From Cenococcum geophilum 1.58 (Eukaryota; Ascomycota; Dothideomycetes; Gloniales; Gloniaceae), in the NCBI GenBank assembly GCA_001692895.1, contig KV748213.1, positions 1,240,001-1,304,000 on the forward strand: a stretch of 64,000 nt of DNA, written 5' to 3'. Position numbers and translations under genes: made by a program. The notes under the pieces are model-generated. The model searched no databases and was not told the origin of the DNA. It worked only from the letters and a program-made list of their open reading frames with translations. Within the stretch, counting starts at the first letter, position 1, and every line of letters starts with the position of its first letter. This document shows, in pieces, positions 1-11,664 of the stretch.

Positions 1-1132
1 GGCCCATCCGGAGAAGACGCAGTCATGGCAGATGGAAGCATCCATGGGGAGGAGGGCCCTGCAGAGATGACCGCAGAGCCCGAGGAGCCGTCCTTTGGGG
101 AACTACTTCAAGCGAATGCGCCAGACATTGTCGACGTTGAAACCACCTTCGCCGATCCCAATGCGAATGTCAGGGCTCTTGCACCTGCTTCAAGGAATCG
201 GACACTTTCGCTTCCATCTGCAACATCCCTCGGCACAGTGCTTACACAAGCCCTCAAGACAAATGACAGAGAGTTGTTGGAATCATGCTTACACAAGCCC
301 TCAAGACAAATGACAGAGAGTTGTTGGAATCATGCTTACACAAGCCCTCAAGACAAATGACAGAGAGTTGTTGGAATCATGTTTCGGAATGAACGACTTG
401 GAAAGCGTGCGATCCACCATTGAACGACTTCCCTCGACCCTCATCGCGAATCTTCTACAAAAGCTAGCAGAAATACTACACAAACGCCCCGGGCGTGCCG
501 GTAACCTCATGGTATGGGTACAATGGTCTCTCGTAGCACACGGTGGATATCTAGCCAGCCAGCCAAAAGTAGTGCGGCAGCTTTCCAACTTGAACAAAGT
601 CCTCAAGGAGAGAGCAAGTGGTCTTCAGCCGCTTCTGTCGCTCAAGGGAAGGTTAGATATGCTGTACGCTCAGCTAGAGCTGAGAAGAAATATTCAGAAG
701 ACGGCTGCGACTGAGGATGATGATGGTGAAGGTGTAATATATGTTGAGGGAGAGGAAGAAATCTCATCAGATGAGGCAGTGACTGAAGAAGGTCGGCTCG
801 CCATTGATAGAGGCTCTAGACCGGACAAATCGAACCAAAGGAAACCAGCGGACTTACAGCACATAGAAGAGAACGAAAGTTCTGAGGATGACGAAATGCC
901 AACAACTGTGAACGGTATTGACCATGTGGAAGAGTCGGATGATGAAAGTGAAGACTCGGAAGTGATGTACGATGAGGAAGCAGAGGAGACGGAAAATGAC
1001 ACGGGAGACGATTTGTCTGAGCCAGACAGTGACGCAGAACTGGACGATGGAGAGGAAATCTCCGAAAGCGAGGAAGACGTACGGCCCACCAAGCGCTCGA
1101 TGGCAGCTCACTCAGGCCTTTCTCGCCGGTAA
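1..1132 (+). CDS. UTP5: UTP5/WDR43-like small-subunit processome protein, 3' part with a frame break
   Basis: The window opens inside a reading frame, so the N-terminal WD40 part lies upstream. The frame from base 1 reads into a conserved block starting VLTQALKTNDRELLESC, runs into a triplicated 47-bp unit and stops at 360. The continuation, from GMNDLESVRSTIERLP to LSLKGRLDMLYAQLELRR, is in the next frame and ends at 1132. Together these are the two halves of a Utp12 domain, followed by a long Glu/Asp-rich tail, as in Utp5/WDR43, a nucleolar t-UTP/UtpA subunit needed for 18S rRNA maturation. The family assignment is from remembered domain similarity. Two extra 47-bp units add 94 bp, which explains the frame change exactly. 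A gene of this kind is essential in yeast, so an assembly error or an unusual allele are both possible. An ATG at 332 opens the downstream frame. Other Utp12-domain proteins (Utp4/Utp12 relatives) are a less likely alternative. Confidence 0.72.
240..380 (+). repeat. Three perfect tandem copies of a 47-bp coding unit
   Basis: Units span 240-286, 287-333 and 334-380 and are identical by eye. They lie inside the Utp12 domain of the UTP5-like gene. Since 47 is not a multiple of three, the extra copies change the reading frame. No AGGT occurs in the unit, so a GT-AG intron cannot remove exactly two copies. Confidence 0.95.
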
Positions 1133-2045
1133 TGAACGATCTCACGCTATCTTTTTTCTTTGGCTTGGAATAGACGTCTTACGCTTTCGTCTCATAACGG
1201 TCGTGGACGGGACCAAAAAGTACTTTAACGACCCCCCGATTTCTGTGTTCATCTGTTGTTGTACACAAGATACATCGCTTTTTCCAGTAGATACCAGCCA
1301 CACGAGGATATGAGTGGGCATGATATCCTGGCGTTCAGGGAATTTGGAGTCTCGAATATGCGCGAGATGTTGGCAACTACTTGCATAGCGTTGGCTTAGA
1401 AAGGCAATTCCGGCTTTGTTCCTTTCCCAGCATATCTCTGATACATGCTCTTGTTATAGTCCCTGACCATCTCGTTTTAGGAACGGTATTGGCGCTCTGT
1501 TCAATCTGTCACTCATCAAATAGCGAGCATTGTCGGTGCTTTGTTTCTTAGCAGAAACTATTATATTAAATTTAAAATATCTTAGAACAAATTAAATGGA
1601 GAACTACCTAAACGTCTTCAGACGCCTCTAAAATAATCTCCTGTTCTTAACGTTCCCTAGCGAGGGCGGGTGCGGAAAGCCTCCGCCCATCTTTTCTAAA
1701 AGTGCTTCGCCATAATGAAAATTTGGCTTGAACACTGATATGTAACTACTCACAAACCAGATATTAGAATGCCTCCAGGTCCAGCTTCATGACGGGGATT
1801 TACTCCAAACAGCGTTCTTCCCTGCATCTCTCAATATGTCCTCTACAACTTTTACGGGTGTTGAAATGGCGAACTTTATTTACTTTTAAAATATGTAAAC
1901 TTTGTATGATTTCGAAACCGTTTAGCTTCCGCCATTGATGGGGATGGTAAGGTTTGTGGTTTTGATAAGGTTGGACACTATAGAGAGGCGAGGGCGCTTT
2001 CGCCCCTCCCTAACTATATCCTGCAATTCTAGTTTACTTCCTCTT
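1133..2045. other. Intergenic region, no gene seen
   Basis: This lies between the convergent ends of the UTP5-like gene and the next minus-strand gene. It presumably holds both 3' untranslated regions. It is moderately A+T rich, with an AT-rich patch near 1560-1610. I see no recognisable gene, repeat or RNA. Confidence 0.6.
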
Positions 2046-2636
2046 TTAGCTTTCCCTCTTCTCCCAACACCTAATTACCACTGCTGACCTTTCAGTCTTT
2101 AGGTAGCTGCTCTCACGTTCTACCGTTACTCCTGCACCCTCCCATACGTTCTTAATACCTATAAGCATATCCCTGTATGCAGCCCGTGTCTTTTCCAACT
2201 GTTCCTCATCATATTTACCAGCTGGAACCCTGCATCTCCATTTAATACACGATCTTCGACGCTTTTGCAGGTCTTCACACGTCTCTTTATCCAGAAGAAT
2301 ATCTTCCACAAAGTCTTTAACAATATCATCTCCAAACACACTCGCTTCCCCTTCCCACAGATGCGGGGAAACTATCCTTTCCTGTACGAACCGAACCTCA
2401 TTTAAACAACCATCTTGAAGCATACGGAGGGCTGTAAATGACAGCTTCCCGTTGTTCGAGCCCACATACTGAGGAATTGCGATGCTAAAGCTTTTCAGAG
2501 ACATCCTCTGGGGCAAGAATGTCGTGGCGGAGGAAAGCGAGGGACTATCTTTCGTATGCGGTCGGAGCTGGTTTGGTATGTAGATCCTTTTGATCTGTTT
2601 CAGGTTCTTTGGTGGAGGAGATCGGAAGAATTTCAT
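2046..2636 (-). CDS. Hypothetical protein, 196 aa
   Basis: A single uninterrupted minus-strand frame of 196 codons with ordinary codon use, unlike the RIP-mutated DNA nearby. The N-terminus is basic and proline-rich (MKFFRSPPPKNLKQIKR) with no signal peptide or membrane segment. The middle (IAIPQYVGSNNGKLSFTALR) could be a beta-rich start. The C-terminal half is charged and probably helical (KDFVEDILLDKETCEDLQKRRR, then EEQLEKTRAAYRDMLIGIKN). It ends SAVVIRCWEKRES. I do not recognise the family and assign no function. Just upstream of its start begins RIP-mutated sequence resembling the end of a transposase, so the gene sits at the edge of a repeat. It could be a lineage-specific gene or a shortened copy of a longer one. 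Confidence 0.5.
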   Translation of the reverse strand: MKFFRSPPPKNLKQIKRIYIPNQLRPHTKDSPSLSSATTFLPQRMSLKSFSIAIPQYVGSNNGKLSFTALRMLQDGCLNEVRFVQERIVSPHLWEGEASVFGDDIVKDFVEDILLDKETCEDLQKRRRSCIKWRCRVPAGKYDEEQLEKTRAAYRDMLIGIKNVWEGAGVTVERESSYLKTERSAVVIRCWEKRES

Positions 2637-2639
2637 AAT

Positions 2640-2935
2640 TTCCCTGAGCTCTGTGATGAGAAGGAAAGGCTAAAAAGGGAAGCTAAATTAAAGGTATAGA
2701 GATAGGTAAAGAAAGAGCAGCAAGTAATAGATAGACAGTTAAAAGTAGAGGTTAAGTAGGCTAATAAGAAGCCTAGGAAAGTACCTATTAGGAAGCTATC
2801 TCCTAAAAAGGTAGAGGTTAAGCCTAAAAGTGTAAATAATAATGCCGAGGTGGTATTTTAATATAAGTAACCTAGGAGGCAACCCAAACCTACACGAAAG
2901 GTTTTAGAGAGGGATAATTAGATAGAAAGTTTCAC
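2640..2935 (+). mobile_element. RIP-mutated remnant, possibly the 3' end of a pogo/Fot1-type transposase
   Basis: Read on the plus strand, this gives a lysine/arginine/glutamate-rich coiled tail (KERLKREAKLK, then KKPRKVPIRKLSPKKVEVK) followed by PTRKVLERDN, interrupted by stops of the CAG-to-TAG kind. Long basic helical tails of this sort are common at the C-termini of fungal pogo/Tigger DDE transposases. No inverted repeat or catalytic core is present, so the family call is tentative. Confidence 0.3.
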
Positions 2936-3739
2936 ATTCCTTTAAGCTTTAAATTTCGCTAAAAATAAATTAAATACGTTAAGAAATGGTGGAGTTATAG
3001 GTTACTAAACTTATTTGTGAAAATGGTGGAGAAGCGAGCATTTAGTGAGGCCGTGCATTTGATAATACGCACGGTTATCACGTGATACGCCGCTGAGCTC
3101 AAAGAGACTGCCCAAGTACCCCCCCCTACCAACAGTTTGTGCCATGGCTGAGTGGTGCGGAGCTAGTCGCCTCACAATAAGCAACTCTTTTTAGGTAGGA
3201 GTTGATTCCTGCTAGTATTAGTATATAAATCGTTATAGAAACTTCCTATATAATTACTCGCTTAAAATTAAATGTAAAACGGTATAAGCTAGTATAGCTT
3301 CTTAAATAGACAAATGTCCCTCATTTTGGTATTTAACAAGAGCTTCTTATGCTATGTCCTAATTTTAAGCTATATTGAACAAGAAGTGGTGGATTAATTG
3401 CGTAGAAAAATTGGTGATTTGATTTTGGTAAGACATCCGAGCTCAGGGGCGTCCGAGTACTATGGGCCCGAGCTTACATGAAGAAGATGTAGGAATAGAG
3501 GGGGATGGTGTAGGTAATAGAAAAATAATAACAGGCGGCTGGAACAGGGTGGTAATTCATAGGGTGGTAGGCAGCAGGTCGACAGCTAGTTACAACAATT
3601 ATTCTTCAAACAGTACTAACATACAGGACCCTTGTTTATGCCATTCAATACCCTAGTTATATTTGCAATAAATCCAAGAATCAGTTATGACTATGCATAA
3701 GTCAAGTGGGCATCTCATCAATTAGAAGTGAGACTCCGT
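2936..3739. other. Intergenic region with partly RIP-mutated sequence
   Basis: Downstream of the phosphate symporter gene. A perfect 12-bp palindrome containing CACGTG is at 3076-3087. A tRNA-like T-arm is visible near 3192-3213, but no complete tRNA folds. A 64-codon open frame at 3462-3656 has no support. AT-rich stretches carry TA-rich RIP character. Confidence 0.5.
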
Positions 3740-5737
3740 TTAGGAAAAGTGAGGAGCATTGAGGAACAGACCCATGAGTACTCCTCCGAGAGTGCCGGCG
3801 ATGGGGATAGTGGCGATCCATGCGAGGACGAGGAGGCCGACTCGCTGGAAGTTGACTGCCTTTAAGGTGCCGTTGCAGAGGCCGACACCGACGGTAGCGC
3901 CAGTGATGCACATAGAGGTAGAGACGGGAAGAGAGTACTGCGAGAAGACGAGGACGGTGATGGCGGCGCCCATCTCCATAGAGCAACCTGGAAAAACGAG
4001 CAGAGTCAGCAGATGCCGTGTTAGCCCGGAGGGAAGGCGACAAACCTCTACTAGGTGAATGGTATGTGATCTTGTTACCCATGACTGTTCAAGAATCGAG
4101 TTAGCATAAGTATTCAAGGTACGCCATTGAGCTCCGCTCACCCTTCATGATGTTGTAACCATAGGTAATAAGGCCGACCGAGATGGTTGCAGAGAGAACG
4201 GCGAGCTGCCAGATGGGGACAGGAGCCTTGGAAGCAGCGGCACTGCCGGTAGACCAGGCGGAGTAGATGACAGCCCAGGGTCCGACCGAGTTTCCAATGT
4301 CATTGGCGCCATGGGCAAAGGATGCAGTGCAGGCGGTGAGGATCTGGACGAACGAGTAGGTGTGCTCGACTTCGTTGGGATACTTCTCTGCGTGTGCGTA
4401 CACACGCTGCATGCGGTTACCCTCCGGGGTGCCAGCAATACCAGTCTGTGCAGCGTGGATATCATAGTGGAGGCCATAGAGAGCACCGCAAACGATCATG
4501 GCAGGAATGCGCTTTGCGACAATCTTGATGTTGTGAAGCTCGTAGAGCTGGCCAGCGCCCATAGGGTTGTCATGGAGTGTGCGCATAGCCCAGCCGAGGG
4601 GACCGCGCTTCTTCCTGAGCTTTGCATGCAGCTTGCTCTCGCCCTGAGCCATAAGCTCTTTGTAGGTGAACTGTGTGGCCTCGGCCGCAGCAAGCTTCTT
4701 CTCGTTTTCCTCGGCGGGGGTCGTGATGGGCATGTCTCCGGTCTCGTTCTTATTAGCATCATATTCACCGACTAATTCTGGCGAGCGAGTGGGGGACTGT
4801 TTCTCCTGTTCCTCCTGGTCCTCCTGGACGACGGCGTAGTTGGGAACATTGGCCCGGTCAGCATCGGCAGGGGCTGGGCGTTTGAAGAGCAGAGGGCCCA
4901 GTATGAACATCCACGGCTTAACCTTGTTATCCTTCTTAATAATCTTTGCATACACGAAGGGGACGAAGAAGATGGCCGACAGGACGGCGACACCACCGCC
5001 TGTGCCCATGGTGACGGCGGCAACATACCACGCGGGCTTCTTGTTTAGGCCTAGGTTGGGAGAGCCCTTGTAGACGATGGACAGTGTGCAAATGGTACCG
5101 GCGATAAGGAAGAAGAAGGGCGAGGTGTAGACGGCCCACGGCACGGGATTCTTGCGAATGTGCACAACGAGCTTAATGAGCATGAAGATGCTAGCGGCAA
5201 AGCCGGCGGAAATGGCAGGAGCCATTCCCAGCCCGGCAAAGATGGCACCGAGACCCTTGCCATTGTTCCAGCTCCACTGGACCTTGGAGGCCCCGACGGT
5301 CGCGACACCGACGCCGGCGACGGCCGAGATGAGCGAGTAGGTCGACGAGACGTGGGCAGAGTGTCGCGTGCACCACATGACCCATGAAGAGGCGGCTGCG
5401 AGCGCGCAGGTGAATGCGAGCATCTGGACACCAGCATCGCCGCGGAAGGCCGAGTTGGGAATGATGCCGTTCTTGATAGTGTCGGCCGTTCGCGCGCCGA
5501 CAGTGATCGCTCCAAGCATCTCAAATATGGTGCCAAATACCATTGCCTGTCTGTACGAGATGGACCTCGACGAGACACTGGTCGCCCAGGCGTTTGCCAC
5601 ATCGTCTATCAAATTAATTAGTATCTGTACCACACAGAAGCAGGTCCGAGCTACTCACTTGCACCGTTGTTGTAGGCATCGAGCATGGCAAACAAAGTGC
5701 CAATAACAAAGACGTAGGTGTGCTGGTGGATCGCCAT
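3740..5737 (-). CDS. PHO89: Na+/inorganic phosphate symporter, PiT (PHO89) family
   Basis: Plasma-membrane transporter that takes up phosphate with sodium. I read four exons on the minus strand: 5737-5659, 5605-4142, 4084-4046 and 3987-3740, giving 609 codons, the usual size for fungal Pho89/PHO-4. The three introns (53, 57 and 58 bp) have GT-AG ends. Splicing restores both family signatures: GANDVANAWATSV at about residues 25-37 and HGANDIGNSVGPW at about 458-470. The small third exon supplies GNKITYHSPSRG, continued as CSMEMG in exon four. Hydrophobic segments flank a long hydrophilic loop at about residues 290-375 (rich in E, Q, K), as expected for this family. The C-terminal CITGATVGVGLCNG motif is intact, and the start ATG (MAIHQHTYVFVIG) is the only sensible one. 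A TATA-like box lies about 80 bp upstream. A retroelement begins 149 bp upstream of the start, so normal phosphate control may be altered. Confidence 0.95.
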
Positions 5738-5814
5738 CTTGACGGAAGGTGAGCGGGTGTTAGTCGATAATAGATGCCGGATACTAGAGGTAAGAGAGAG
5801 ATAGCGAGACAAAG

Positions 5815-5822
5815 CTTTTATA
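5815..5822 (-). promoter_or_regulatory. TATA-like box of the phosphate symporter gene
   Basis: The minus strand reads TATAAAAG, 78-85 bp upstream of the ATG at 5737. Spacing and sequence suit a fungal core promoter. It lies between the gene and the retroelement edge at 5886, so the core promoter is intact. Confidence 0.55.
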
Positions 5823-5885
5823 TGCCGTATGACATGGCCTTCTGCCCCCACCTACCCTCTTAGCTCATCGAGGCCTACAAACGTT

Positions 5886-6034
5886 GTCTATTATTCACAC
5901 GCTTGCGGAGAAGAGGATTAATTAATCTGATTAGTGGGTACGGGCTTAAAGGCATTAATTAAGAATGGGTATATTCGCAAGGCCATTTGCAGGGGATTGC
6001 CCTGCCTTAACTAAACGTGATGCCCATAGACCCG
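5886..6034 (-). repeat. Outer split direct repeat B2 of the retroelement
   Basis: 149 bp matching 6215-6363 position for position apart from RIP-type transitions. This copy keeps its CA and TG dinucleotides, so it is essentially unmutated, and its outer end defines the element boundary next to the phosphate symporter promoter. Confidence 0.85.
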
Positions 6035-6110
6035 TGCGCAAGCATATCGCTACAGTATCTATTTACAAAGCCTAAAATATATAACCAAAGAAAAAGGTAT
6101 AGGTAGGAGG

Positions 6111-6216
6111 GAAAGCAAGCAAGCAAGGCTTAATTTTGTAAATGTTAATAATATTAATGTTACTAAGATATAGGGGTGCTGCTATAGTGCTCGCTTAGCC
6201 ATATAGATATATCTAT
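6111..6216 (-). repeat. Inner split direct repeat A2 (RIP-mutated copy of 10524-10629)
   Basis: 106 bp matching the far terminal repeat at 10524-10629. It begins at the repeated GAAAGCAAGCAAGCAAGG and ends exactly where the other inner repeat begins. The differences are transitions of the RIP type. Confidence 0.85.
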
Positions 6217-6363
6217 CTATTATTTATATACTTACGGAGAAGAGGATTAATTAATCTAATTAGTAGGTACGGGCTTAAAGGCATTAATTAAGAATAGGTA
6301 TATTCATAAGGCTATTTATAGGGGATTACTCTACCTTAACTAAACGTAATACCTATAGACCTA
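6215..6363 (-). repeat. Inner split direct repeat B1 (RIP-mutated copy of 5886-6034)
   Basis: 149 bp matching the outer copy at 5886-6034 with many C-to-T and G-to-A differences. It abuts the A2 repeat, with one or two shared bases at the junction (6215-6216). Confidence 0.85.
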
Positions 6364-9300
6364 GAAGCGCAGCGCCTATACCACACAAGGTAGAGTAAGG
6401 GGAAGAAAAAATAAAAAATAAAAAAAGGGGGGAAAGGAGAGATTTAAGTTAATATATTAAAGTGCTAAAATAGGTACTTCTATACGCCGTTATACCTAAA
6501 TACCTTTACCTATTATATCTAGGGCGAGTAATAATAAGAACAGTATTAGTATTCTATGTTAGAAGTTTATACTTAGCCAGAATAGGTTTTTTAGGGATAA
6601 TAAATAGTAAAGCTGGAACGCTTATAAGGACTACTAGCCTAGTTGCTATATTTAGCCGTTTATAAAACCGTTATCTTAAGCGTATTAAGTAGCACCTTTT
6701 TAAAATAAGTGTCTATTATAGAGCTTAGAGTAGAGGCTAAGAGCAGTAACTTTATACTTTAGCTTATTTCTAACCGCGTAGCTTATAAAGGCCAATCTCT
6801 TAAAGTAAAAGAGAGGGGCGTTTTTAGGTTAGGGGTTATTTTTAAATAGGTGTTTTATAGCTTAAACTGCGCATTTAGGTTGCCCTAAAGCGGCAATTAT
6901 AATTAAGACTCCTTAGTAATTAACGTCTGTTTTACTATACTTTAGATATAATATTATATAGTCCTCTACTAGCGTTATATTATTTCTAGTACATTTTATA
7001 GTAAAGAAGGCGTAGCTATCTTTCTAAGCCTTAGTGTAGGTAATCTCGCCTAGATAAAGGAATCCCGTAAAGGCTATAGTAATAGCGGTATTAAAGTTAA
7101 GATCCTTAACGGATTAGGTATTTAGGGTAACTAATTAGGTAAGAATATCTTTAGTAATTAGCAATCTTTTAGCCGTAGTAGAGGGATTTATAGATGTTAC
7201 ACCGTTTAGGATTCTCTTAATAATAGGATTATTAAAGACGGAGGTATTATAATTAGCGTTAATATAGTGGGATTAAATTGCGAAGACATAGGCTCTAATT
7301 ATAGTAGGCTTAATACGGCTTATTCCTAGACTAGCATTACTAAAGATCTATTAGGTAATCCATTCTCCTAGGTAGTAGAGGGGCGCTAAGTACTTTACCG
7401 CTCTATAAAGGTTGTAGTAGCCCTCCTAACTCTTAATTGCGGAATAGTATAAATCTCTTATTCTATTAAAGAGGCTATGCTATAATAGTTAGCCGAAGTA
7501 TTCTAAGGGGGCTTTTACCTTAATCTAGAAATTAGGTAGGGGGTCTTTAAAAGGAACTAGGTCTTTTATTTTAGCGTTAGATTAAATATAATAAAGAAGC
7601 GTATAGTAACGGTAAATTAGAAGTATCCTAATGCGGGTATAATAATAACACCCTATTGCAATTAAAATGAGATAGAGTATTAGCTAGCCTATTTTTTATA
7701 AAGGAAACCCACTCTATATAGAGCGTAATATTATAGGCTGCGGCTAGTTAAAGGATTTTACGGAGCGGGTAATTACCCAGTTCTTTTACCACCATATTCT
7801 AAAATCCTAAGAGTGCTACTATATTATCCGTATGGATATAGACTAAGCTATACTCCTACCGCGTTACCTAAAGCTAGAATAAGGTTGTAATTACTTAGAC
7901 CTCCTACTTATTAATTAGGGCAAGGCGGTGTTTTATATTAGGGTAGTAGCTTAAAGAATTATCTTAGGGTAGAGATACTAAATAGGGCGGCTATATTATC
8001 CCTTAAGAATCCTTAAGAAAGAAGAAGGCCCTATAACTAAGAATCCCGGATACGTCTAAAAAGAGATAGAATTATTTTTAATTTATATTATTAAAAAAGA
8101 GGATACTATTTAAAAGGGTAAGAGTATCCCTCCACTATAATAAGTCTTGGCAAAGTTTAGCTATTAGCCGTTAGTAAGGATAACCACCTACTTTTATAAA
8201 AGTAGAGATAAACTCCTAGATAGAGCGATTATATAAATACCTAAGCCTAATTACCCGGGCGCTTTAAGTAAGTCTACTAGCTAGTTTTTAACTCTAAACT
8301 AGCGTTAGGGATCTACCACTTAACGCTTTATTAATCTCCTTAATTATAGTGGCCTATTTTAAAGGAGAAAGACGCAGCTTAGACTTTAGAGTATCTATAA
8401 TATAACCTAGGACTTTAGCCATAGTGCCTTTAATATTCTTTAATTCGTTTTATAGGATGCCTAATTTATTACTTAATTAGTTATACACGCTAAGTAATTA
8501 AGGGAGGATAGAAGCGTTAGAGAGTATAAAGATAAAGTTATCTAGATAGTGCTTTAAGGCGGCGTTTAAGATATATTAGATAAGTATTTAGTAGAATCCC
8601 TTCGCAAAAAGATTAAATAAAAAGGGTGTAGTTTAAAGGCTAAATAAGAGGTAATATTTAAAATATACTATACCCTTTTAGGAGAACCCTATAAGGCGTT
8701 AAGCTTTAATAGAAAGTAGGATGTTTTAAAAGGCGTCCTTAATATCCCTTTTAATAATTATATAACTACGGCCTATATATATAACGTATTAGAGAACCTA
8801 ATTAACTATTAAATATTATAGTATAGTAAATGCTATAGGGATTAAGTTATTAACAGATTAGCTAGATAGTAAGGATAAGTTATAAATATGGCGCCATCCC
8901 CTATCCGCTTTAGGTACTAAACCTAGTAATAAAAATATAATAGGAGACGTTGCTATTATAATTCTACCTATATTTAGATTGGCGCTAATCTTCTCTAAGA
9001 TTAAGACCATATTTGTGGCTATTAAGGCTTAATTTTTCTAGGAGAGGAACTTAATTTTTAGGTCTGCCCTAATCTGGCATCTAAACTTTAAGATACTAAT
9101 AATGTTATATTAAAGGTTGCCGGGGTATAGGGATAAATAACGCCCCCACGCTTAAATAATTAAGGGGGAGGGAAAGTCCTATAGAGGAGAGGAGGGTAGA
9201 AAGACTGGAAATAATAGTATAGTATTTAGCCTACCCGTACTATAAGGGTAAAGCACGGTTTTAGTAGAGTATAGGTATAGCTTAATAAAATCCTCTTCCT

Positions 9301-10523
9301 TCTCTTCCTTTTTCTTATTAACACTTTCCTCTAGTAATTACTACTTATAATTTCTTACAGTATACGGGCCACCGTACTTACTATAGGTATATAGGAACTT
9401 ATAATCCTTACCTAGGTCACACTTCCCTCTATTAAAGCTATAATAGGTCCTTAAGATATTAGTGCTTACTTATACGCGTTTTAAGATAGATACGGATTTA
9501 TAAGTACTAGGATTATAATAAATATCTAGGAAGTTACTAGAGATCTTTTAGTTAGCTAGCTCTAACTAGTTCTTTTAAATAACTATAAAGTAGTGCTCTA
9601 AGGCTATAGTTATTAAGGGAGCAATTTAGTAGGTGGTAAATAGCTAGATAACTTAATTATAGAAGGCAAGTATTTAGGGAATAAGATCTACTAAAAGATT
9701 CTTATATATAATAATTAAAATTATTATATAGTTAAGAAAGCCCTCTACCTATACTTTAATAAATAGGTAGTCCTTTATTATCCCTTTTTTTAATCTTATA
9801 AAAAGGACGCTATTAATAATAAGGATATTATTTTAAGGCTTAGACTAGAGCTAGTATATCTAGAGGCAAGAAAGGTTATTAAGTAAAAAAGTACCCTAAA
9901 ATACCTTAAGTATCTCTTTATTTAGGACGCCAGGGAAAAGGGTATTTAGGATATTAGCTATAGATAGAAGCAACTTACCTAGTTTATTAATTAGGGTTAA
10001 GAATAATACTACTATAGCTAATTTCGCTATTACCGTAGCGAGGCTTAATATATAGAGTTTAGTCGCCTAATCTTCCTATTCTTTTTAAACGTATAGTATT
10101 TTAGTACAGTCCTCCTATTTCTAAAGAAGTTTTATTTTTTAGTTAGTTGCTTAGTCCTTAACCTCCTTTACCTAAGCTCTTTTAATCCTTAGGTCCTCTT
10201 TATATAGTTACTAAAGCCATTTTTTAGCTTTTTTAGTAGCTAAAGTCTCGCATTAAGCCGCGGAGAGAGGCGCTATTATAGAGAATAGAGACTATAACGC
10301 TGGCGTATCGCCTAAAGGTGTAGGGGAAGGTAAGGGAGACTGGTAGGTAACCTCTAAGGAGTTTAGCTTATTAAGTGTATCGTTATTAGTTAAGTTTTTA
10401 AGGTTTTTATAAATAATTTGCGAAGGTTTAGATAAGCGTATAGGTTATTAAGTTATTAACAGCAATAATTAATTATTAGAAATTAAGTAAATAAGGCATT
10501 AGCTTTTAAATAAGACTAATATA

Positions 10524-10629
10524 GAAAGCAAGCAAGCAAGGCTTAATTTTGTAAATGTTAATGATGTTGGTGTTGCTAAGATGCAGGGGTGCTGCTGCAG
10601 TGCTCGCTTAGCTACATAGACATGTCCAT
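10524..10629 (-). repeat. Outer split direct repeat A1 of the retroelement
   Basis: 106 bp, the nearly unmutated partner of 6111-6216. The RIP-type composition ends sharply just before this repeat, and ordinary host-like sequence continues after it. Confidence 0.85.
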
Positions 10630-11071
10630 ATACAGACAGTGGCAAGAGTGGTTTGCCCTATTTAGATACAATTCGTGCCACGTTCCCATATCGCGGAGTG
10701 TGATTCGCAATAACGACATAACAGCCACTTTCGCAAGCGTCTTGGTATATCCGTGAAGTTGCGTGAAGATTGGAGTGTCGTTCGCGGATGAGGCTCTCGG
10801 CGAGGCTTGGGTGTTGTCCGCCTTCTTGGGAGGATCCGCTCTTCGCCTTGGCAGGAGACCGATTGTAGTCGATTATTTATATGCAGACCTGTGGTCTATG
10901 ACAGCGATGTCACCCTCAAGCCCCAAATCTAGTATCCAGGGAGGCCCTCATAGCCTGCTTCTGCTGCCAAGTCTCAAACGGCGGCGAGGAGGCGCATCTC
11001 TAGGGGTGGACGATCGGTTATTACGTATTGTATCGTTCTACTTATAATTACAGATATGCGTTTGTAGCGCA
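10630..11071. other. Host-like sequence, displaced upstream region of the phosphate symporter
   Basis: Ordinary composition without RIP character. Removing the retroelement would place this directly upstream of the symporter promoter. A 94-codon open frame at 10763-11047 (+) has no recognisable domain and I do not call it a gene. CACGTT occurs at 10679-10684. Confidence 0.5.
10679..10684. promoter_or_regulatory. CACGTT, possible Pho4/NUC-1-type site cut off from its gene
   Basis: CACGTG and CACGTT are the known bHLH phosphate-regulator sites of yeast and Neurospora. Here CACGTT lies 50 bp beyond the outer end of the retroelement, so in the uninterrupted locus it would stand about 200 bp upstream of the symporter ATG. 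A six-base match can be chance. Confidence 0.3.
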
Positions 11072-11664
11072 ATCCCTTCGTGTGGCAAGAATTCATGCAC
11101 TTTTCGTATATGCACGCCTCTTAAGCCAATCTAGAGGCTCTATACTGTATATAGCTTGGTGTTAAAGCCTTGGTCGGTGCGATTGCTCGGCGGTAGGGGT
11201 ATAGGCGCCTTATCTGCGCCTCTGACGTTCGAATATTGCGGTAAGTAGCAGCAACGTGGATAGGAAGCCTGTACAGAATATAGAATATATAGTATAGTTA
11301 ATTAAAAAGCTTTAATATTATTGCTGCCTATTTAATTATAAATCCTCAGCAACTTATTATCCTTATGCCGCCTAGAAAATGCTGTGCGTCTTTAGTTCTA
11401 AAGCCTCTATAATTAAACAGCTAGTTAATAAAGGAAGGACAGGAGTATACAGCTATAACATTATATATTACAACTTCCTGCCTAACTTCCTCAAAAAATA
11501 TATATCCAGTGTCTTTTTTGTAGTGGCCTTAGACAGCATTTCGTCGATATATTGAGGTGCTTGCTAATAAAATCGCGCTAGCTAGGATGTCTGCAGCATG
11601 CTAACCCAAGTAGAAGCGCCCAATGCGCCCAATACGAAAAGTGCTAAATGCCACACGAAGGGAT
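11072..11664. mobile_element. Short inverted-repeat element (MITE-like), 593 bp
   Basis: The left end (11072-11110) and right end (11632-11664) form an imperfect terminal inverted repeat. The outer arm ATCCCTTCGTGTGGCA pairs perfectly with 11649-11664, and an inner arm GCACTTTTCGTAT pairs with 11632-11644. The interior is AT-rich and non-coding. I see no clear target duplication, so the superfamily (Mutator-like or other) is open. Confidence 0.6.

What the first reader, a model, noticed from the sequence alone, without database searches (positions are those of the whole stretch)
5886..10629. Retroelement with complete split direct repeats (A1-internal-B1-A2-B2) in an ascomycete
Four repeat blocks sit in the order expected only for PAT/Ngaro-type tyrosine-recombinase retroelements. 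B1 and A2 abut at 6215-6216, and that junction is exactly what joining the two outer ends (5886 and 10629) in a circle would give. A DIRS1-type reverse transcriptase is recognisable on the minus strand near 8.3-8.9 kb. To my knowledge split-repeat elements are described mainly in basidiomycetes, zygomycetes and animals, so an ascomycete family would be noteworthy.
Basis: partly seen in the sequence, partly recalled or inferred. Interest (0 to 1): 0.8.

Follow-up and report, generated by a model that had tools for sequence, protein, structure and literature searches.

The report
Split-repeat tyrosine-recombinase retrotransposon, mutated by RIP
This is a dead copy of a rare kind of jumping gene that inserts with a recombinase and leaves no duplicated target, found here in many recently spread and then heavily mutated copies in one fungus; it is a well-preserved ascomycete example of a kind already known.

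Summary
The finding is real. Direct-repeat blocks lie as A1-B1-A2-internal-B2 on the + strand (A-internal-B-A-B on the coding minus strand); the element is 5887-10629 (4743 bp). The host genome holds many copies: 34 of 40 fetched show both ends. The B1/A2 junction equals the two outer ends fused with one shared T. A nested copy, read directly, and spanning matches to the joined flanks of two others show insertion without target duplication, only that T shared. The minus strand carries, between many stops, RT/RNase H and tyrosine recombinase similarity, with a weak gag-like zinc-finger motif, in Ngaro order and without room for a methyltransferase. A1/A2 and B1/B2 differ by 3 transversions in 9,264 sites, the rest being transitions, mostly RIP-type. 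I file it as Ngaro-like by structure; phylogeny untested. It is not the first in ascomycetes: a complete Ngaro family in Zymoseptoria tritici and a truncated one in Neosartorya fischeri are in print. Noteworthy: over 100 scored RT matches, a young star-like burst, then RIP, in a fungus without known spore-producing structures.

The parts
5887..10629 (-). whole element, 4743 bp, coding strand minus
   Evidence: both ends in 34 of 40 fetched copies
5887..6032 (+). repeat A1 (outer, less mutated)
   Evidence: 87% to 6216-6361 over 146 nt
6033..6110 (.). 78-bp spacer between A1 and B1
   Evidence: between the repeat blocks
6111..6216 (+). repeat B1 (inner, more mutated)
   Evidence: 86% to 10524-10632
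6216..6216 (.). single T shared by B1 and A2: equivalent of the circle junction and of the shared base in the target
   Evidence: element positions 225-330 and 330-475 against the ends; empty sites
6216..6361 (+). repeat A2 (inner, more mutated)
6499..7641 (-). degenerate tyrosine-recombinase ORF (frame from 7641); similarity begins near 7506
   Evidence: 17-copy alignment A1 against the recombinase of L050: hhalign probability 97.3, E 2.5e-11 over 280 columns; motifs
7631..9340 (-). degenerate reverse transcriptase / RNase H ORF; RT core 8402-8779
   Evidence: RVT_1 E 0.0063 in the window, 1.4e-9 in L047 and 9.7e-14 in L049; alignment A2 against L050 hhalign E 4.4e-24
9341..10522 (-). degenerate gag-like region with a CCCH-type zinc-finger motif at its end (weak evidence)
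   Evidence: zf-CCCH/Torus below cut-off in L013, nothing in L047; hhalign with the L050 gag-like ORF E 4.7e-4 over 30 columns, probability 32
10524..10629 (+). repeat B2 (outer, less mutated)
   Evidence: right end placed in 35 of 40 copies

Best explanation
A dead copy of a Ngaro-like tyrosine-recombinase (YR) retrotransposon with complete split direct repeats. When it was active (inferred): the minus strand was transcribed from one outer repeat to the other; RT/RNase H copied it; the internal B1-A2 block, a contiguous copy of the joined ends, served as template to complete the ends and to give a circular DNA with junction ...CCA-T-CTATT...; the YR then recombined the circle at a T in an A/T-rich target (R-T-W-T-A). 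Shown: four blocks, junction equal to the fused ends with one shared T, constant ends in many copies, no target duplication, RT homology, YR homology through a bridging element, near-identity of A1/A2 and B1/B2 apart from transitions. Afterwards repeat-induced point mutation (RIP) hit the family: all 111 scored RT matches carry stops, one of them (C77) far fewer than the rest.
For: Repeat blocks. 40 of 40 scored genome matches to 5887-6361, the window copy included, cover at least 473 of 475 bases at 92-100% identity (237 candidates). 34 of 40 fetched copies with both ends, 20 exactly 4743 bp and 29 in 4741-4744. Nested insertion L010/L051: empty site AACYAA-T-TAAG in five uninterrupted copies and the window, filled AACCAA|TCTATT...CCAT|TAAG. 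Joined flanks of L028 and L030: 40 of 40 and 40 of 40 scored matches span the junction (of 2713 and 437 candidates), 11 and 4 of them run 1-181 in exactly 181 bases; only spans were seen, not alignments. No excess of flanking duplications over shuffled pairs in 34 copies. RT. YR. A1 against A2: 594 differences in 5694 sites, 1 transversion; B1 against B2: 435 in 3570 sites, 2 transversions.
Against: The YR pieces of four copies give no Pfam integrase match, PF00589 finds nothing in the genome, and profiles A1 and A2 find no PDB chain. YR identity rests on one bridging element, L050, whose own integrase score is just below Pfam's cut-off (25.4 of 27.1 bits); of its 71 matches in the genome only 6 lie within 4 kb of one of this family's 111 RT places. 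In the five copies printed the first YR arginine reads Y and the HxxR arginine is a stop. No DIRS/PAT/Ngaro reference set was at hand, so no tree. RNA intermediate and circle were not observed. The 40 fetched copies are the best matches to the window's left end, a biased sample.
Confidence: 0.93

Rival explanations
1. A PAT-like or VIPER-like element, or a separate ascomycete lineage of split-repeat YR retroelements, rather than Ngaro-like in the strict (phylogenetic) sense.
For: [quoted passage not shown] No reference tree could be built here. The nearest relative found, L050, is 34% identical over the RT.
Against: Order gag-like - RT/RH - YR with about 155 bp between the RH and YR similarities leaves no room for a methyltransferase, as PMC9210276 describes for Ngaro (passages).
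Confidence: 0.25
2. An LTR retrotransposon with rearranged or partly duplicated LTRs.
For: Six of the seven PDB sequences matched by the RT piece L049 are retroviral- or LTR-type pol proteins (best E 5.1e-5; the seventh is a maturase RT, E 0.15; that these are foamy virus and Ty3-type proteins is recalled).
Against: No LTR pair; the same four-block order in the 34 copies with both ends; no target duplication; a YR-like ORF; the match to the YR element L050 is far stronger (1e-49, on a much smaller search space).
Confidence: 0.02
3. A DNA element (Crypton-like YR transposon) that carries an RT fragment by nested insertion.
For: A YR and absence of target duplication are also Crypton traits (recalled).
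Against: RT/RH and YR lie together in the same order in L050 and at 27 other loci of the genome that are not among this family's RT places; split repeats are not a Crypton trait (recalled).
Confidence: 0.03

Closest known systems
Ngaro-like retrotransposons (order DIRS)
   Same: A-pol-B-A-B split direct repeats; gag-like, RT/RH, YR in that order; no methyltransferase found; (recalled) no target duplication
   Different: host is an ascomycete; copies are RIP-mutated; a 78-bp spacer between A1 and B1 on the + strand; no hydrolase match in the Pfam scan; phylogenetic place untested
Ngaro (RYN) family of Zymoseptoria tritici, PMC4502367 (passages)
   Same: complete YR retrotransposon family of a Dothideomycete
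   Different: one family covering 23 kb there, against 111 scored RT matches (some partial) here; sequences not compared
Truncated Ngaro of Neosartorya fischeri, PMC3783388 (passages)
   Same: RT, RH and YR in an ascomycete
   Different: single copy without terminal repeats there
L050, unnamed YR element on contig MEIF01000115.1 (filed as a gammaproteobacterium)
   Same: gag-like ORF with CCCH-type finger, RT/RH, YR in the same order; RT 34% identical
   Different: open frames; no repeats of 25 nt or more on the 4.2-kb contig; probably eukaryotic DNA in a bacterial bin (inference)
DIRS1-like elements
   Same: RT/RH plus YR; circular intermediate (recalled)
   Different: DIRS1-like elements have inverted terminal repeats, an internal complementary region and can have a methyltransferase (PMC9210276, passages); none seen here

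Membership tests
Ngaro-like | split direct repeats in A-pol-B-A-B order | tested here: met
Ngaro-like | reverse transcriptase | tested here: met
   RVT_1 in 4 of 4 sources scanned for it, above Pfam's cut-off in L049 and L047, below it in L013 and the window; best relative the YR element L050
Ngaro-like | RNase H after the RT | tested here: met
   alignment A2 runs to column 560 of 570 through the RNase H part of L050; no Pfam RNase H match of its own, L050's RVT_3 is below cut-off: moderate evidence
Ngaro-like | tyrosine recombinase ORF | tested here: met
   through L050; direct Pfam searches found none
Ngaro-like | no methyltransferase domain | tested here: met
   no Pfam match to one in three minus frames; about 155 bp between RH and YR similarity; frames are degenerate, so moderate evidence
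Ngaro-like | insertion without target-site duplication | tested here: met
Ngaro-like | A1=A2 and B1=B2 at insertion (as the replication model requires) | tested here: met
   3 transversions in 9,264 compared sites; identity at insertion is inferred from that
Ngaro-like | RT/YR phylogeny inside the Ngaro clade | not testable with these tools
   no DIRS/PAT/Ngaro/VIPER reference set held; four viral-contig scans found no relative
DIRS1-like | inverted terminal repeats with internal complementary region | tested here: not met
   0 inverted pairs of 20 nt or more in 5600-11000; only an internal near-palindrome at 9699-9738
LTR retrotransposon | LTR pair and 4-6-bp target duplication | tested here: not met

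The most novel reading that the evidence does not exclude
An ascomycete lineage of split-repeat YR retroelements distinct from the known Ngaro clades, spread to more than a hundred copies in a very recent burst and then RIP-mutated in nearly all of them, so that its young insertions record recent premeiotic (sexual) cycles in a fungus with no known spore-producing structures, and give sequence-level proof of insertion with a single shared base.
Probability: 0.3. Interest if true: 0.5.

Novelty: new member of a known kind. Interest (0 to 1): 0.42.

Why it matters
YR retrotransposons are among the less studied retroelements, and the reports from ascomycetes that I found are few. This family has dozens of complete copies with sharp ends, empty sites, and repeat pairs whose differences are almost all transitions of RIP type, which makes the replication model (ends completed from the internal B-A block, circle inserted by recombinase without duplication) testable from sequence alone. 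The combination of almost no transversions with heavy RIP places the silencing after a recent burst. Sexual recombination in C. geophilum was already suggested from population data (PMC5023957, passages), so that inference would add support, not a first claim.

Tried and rejected
Pfam searches for the recombinase in four copies and PF00589 against the genome found nothing; profiles A1 and A2 found no solved structure; four viral-contig scans found no relative; an AlphaFold model of the L050 recombinase was useless (mean pLDDT 33.6) and was not searched. LTR, DIRS1 and Crypton readings rejected for the reasons given in the other fields. An empty site for the window copy itself was sought: its flanks match only themselves, one side each.
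Full report
Observation. The four blocks are in the sequence at the stated place and are far beyond chance (BLASTN E 8.9e-46 and 4.0e-31). On the + strand the order is A1 5887-6032, spacer, B1 6111-6216, A2 6216-6361, 4.1 kb, B2 10524-10629. On the minus strand, which is the coding one, this reads A - internal - B - A - B. The interior is heavily RIP-like (composite index 0.89 to 1.74 between 6001 and 10500; negative at 4001-6000 and 10501-11000, but 0.40 at 11001-11500).

Host. The window lies in a genome of 177.19 Mb in 162 contigs. PMC5445492 (passages) gives 177.57 Mb for Cenococcum geophilum and lists RIP there as 'Probably'; PMC5023957 (passages) gives 178 Mb and 81% repeats.

Other copies. 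The 475 bp of A1-B1-A2 gave 237 candidates, of which the best 40 were scored; all 40 (the window copy included) cover at least 473 bases at 92-100%. I fetched these 40 with flanks. The left end was placed in 39, the right end in 35 and both in 34; 29 of the 34 are 4741-4744 bp, 20 exactly 4743, the other five 4615 to 5192. The six without both ends are L010 (left end outside the stretch), L020, L024, L027, L033 and L038 (right end not found). L020, L024 and L035 are interrupted, with 5-6 bp of overlap of the element coordinates. The choice of the best 40 favours copies like the window's. A read-through RT query gave 111 scored matches (window included, some partial) of 294 candidates, each with stops, 6 in the C77 copy.

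Ends and junction. Flanks differ from copy to copy while the ends stay nearly constant: TCTATTATT... (TTTATTATT in L011 and L012) and ...CCAT or transition variants of it; L035 and L041 end in a different last base. Element positions 225-330 match 4638-4743 and 330-475 match 1-146: position 330, a T, is shared. This is the fusion of the outer ends with one T in common.

Insertion. In 34 copies the immediate flanks show no more duplication than shuffled pairs (0 bases in 14 copies, 1 in 12, 2 in 3, 3 in 4, 5 in 1; shuffled means 16.7, 10.9, 3.3, 2.5, and 0.1 for 5). The base before the element is a purine in 35 of 39; the three after it are W in 33, T in 26 and A in 26 of 35. L010/L051 is a copy inserted in another copy: five uninterrupted copies and the window give the empty site, and the filled site differs from it by the insertion, with one T in common. 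Joined flanks of L028 and L030 gave 40 of 40 and 40 of 40 scored matches that span the joint; 11 and 4 of them run from 1 to 181 in exactly 181 bases, others have small length differences somewhere; alignments were not shown, so the exact joint is read only in the nested case. The window's own site is single-copy and gives no empty site (one search was spoilt by my typing). Insertion without duplication is what a tyrosine recombinase does and what DDE integrases do not (established knowledge).

Coding content. RT: Pfam RVT_1 E 0.0063 in the window, 2.8e-6 in L013, 1.4e-9 in L047, 9.7e-14 in L049; the cut-off of 29.6 bits is passed by L047 and L049 only. L049 shows YLDD. The one relative found in the single genome-contig scan (41 stretches matched a pattern) is L050 (tblastn 1e-49, 34% in the best segment, residues 4-362), a 4.2-kb contig filed under a gammaproteobacterium that carries open gag-like, RT/RH and YR ORFs in this order. 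Its third ORF is a tyrosine recombinase by Pfam (Phage_integrase E 1.4e-5, 25.4 bits, just under 27.1), with weak Cre similarity (best E 0.032). The window family's minus-strand frame at 6499-7641 aligns with it over 280 columns (hhalign probability 97.3, E 2.5e-11). L050's recombinase finds 71 places in the genome, 6 of them within 4 kb of one of this family's RT places, among them C77:614407-615312 (E 6.2e-15), right after the RT of the same copy. In the five copies printed, GRW is kept in part, the final Y is kept, the HxxR arginine is a stop and the first arginine is a tyrosine. RT/RH profile A2 aligns with L050 to the end of RNase H (probability 99.6, E 4.4e-24). A zinc-finger stretch ends the gag-like frame (below cut-off in L013, none in L047; probability 32). 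Against solved structures L049 matches pol proteins of retroviral and LTR type weakly (5.1e-5); the profiles match nothing.

Repeat pairs and age. A1 against A2 in 39 copies: 594 differences in 5694 sites, of which 544 are C>T or G>A from outer to inner, 49 the reverse and 1 a transversion; 390 of the 544 are in CpA/TpG and 97 in CpG context. B2 against B1 in 34 copies: 435 in 3570, of which 358, 75 and 2; 335 of the 358 in CpA/TpG. Across 20 gapless copies (of 34 with both ends) the mean pairwise transversion rate is 0.0003 per site against 0.0881 for transitions, and all 16 transversion columns are singletons. So the pairs were probably identical at insertion, as the model cited in PMC6681497 requires (passages), and the family spread recently and star-like before RIP. 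L049, the piece with the fewest stops of the 111, differs from the window by 172 bases, 169 of them C>T or G>A towards the window (86 in CpA/TpG, 59 in CpG context). [quoted passage not shown] Since RIP is a premeiotic process (established knowledge, Neurospora), this family would support recent sexual cycles; that rests on the host's identity.

Known or new. Muszewska et al. (PMC3783388, passages) found one truncated Ngaro in Neosartorya fischeri; Grandaubert et al. (PMC4502367, passages) a complete Ngaro family in Zymoseptoria tritici. PMC9281073 (passages) lists Ngaro counts in Sporothrix. Searches for Ngaro with Cenococcum (1 paper) and for DIRS with Cenococcum geophilum and transposable elements (4 papers) showed no description of such a family in that fungus: I read passages of PMC7181583 (in both lists) and PMC5445492; the other two papers I saw only in the listing, as I did most papers, among them a Hortaea paper that mentions Ngaro (PMC7601665). 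PMC5023957 itself holds neither 'DIRS' nor 'Ngaro' in its main text. Supplementary tables were not readable. I therefore file it as a new member of a known kind, Ngaro-like by the structural features tested, phylogeny untested.

Noticed in passing
window 5735-5887: The element sits about 150 bp upstream of the likely ATG (5737, minus strand, my reading) of a PHO4-family phosphate transporter gene (Pfam PHO4 E 3.5e-78 for 4101-5651).
   Followed up: partly
element positions 1-4743 in 20 copies: RIP falls off towards the ends: fraction of mutated CpA/TpG sites 0.21 in the first 50 bp, about 0.5 by 250 bp, about 0.7 inside, 0.18 in the last 53 bp. The fall-off is longer on the left than on the right.
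   Followed up: partly
G000, places: 42 of 76 RT matches of the L050 query do not fall on the 111 scored places of this family, and 27 of these 42 have a recombinase match downstream on the same strand within 4 kb: probably further YR-retroelement families in the same genome.
   Followed up: partly
L050 1-4206 (MEIF01000115.1): An open gag-like - RT/RH - YR element on a contig filed as a gammaproteobacterial MAG; probably eukaryotic DNA.
   Followed up: partly
L020, L024, L035: Copies interrupted by other sequence with 5-6-bp overlaps of element coordinates, as LTR-type insertions would leave.
   Followed up: no
window 314-1129 +: Utp12-family gene fragment (Pfam E 1.8e-26).
   Followed up: no
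window 9699-9738: Near-palindrome of about 40 bp inside the gag-like region.
   Followed up: no
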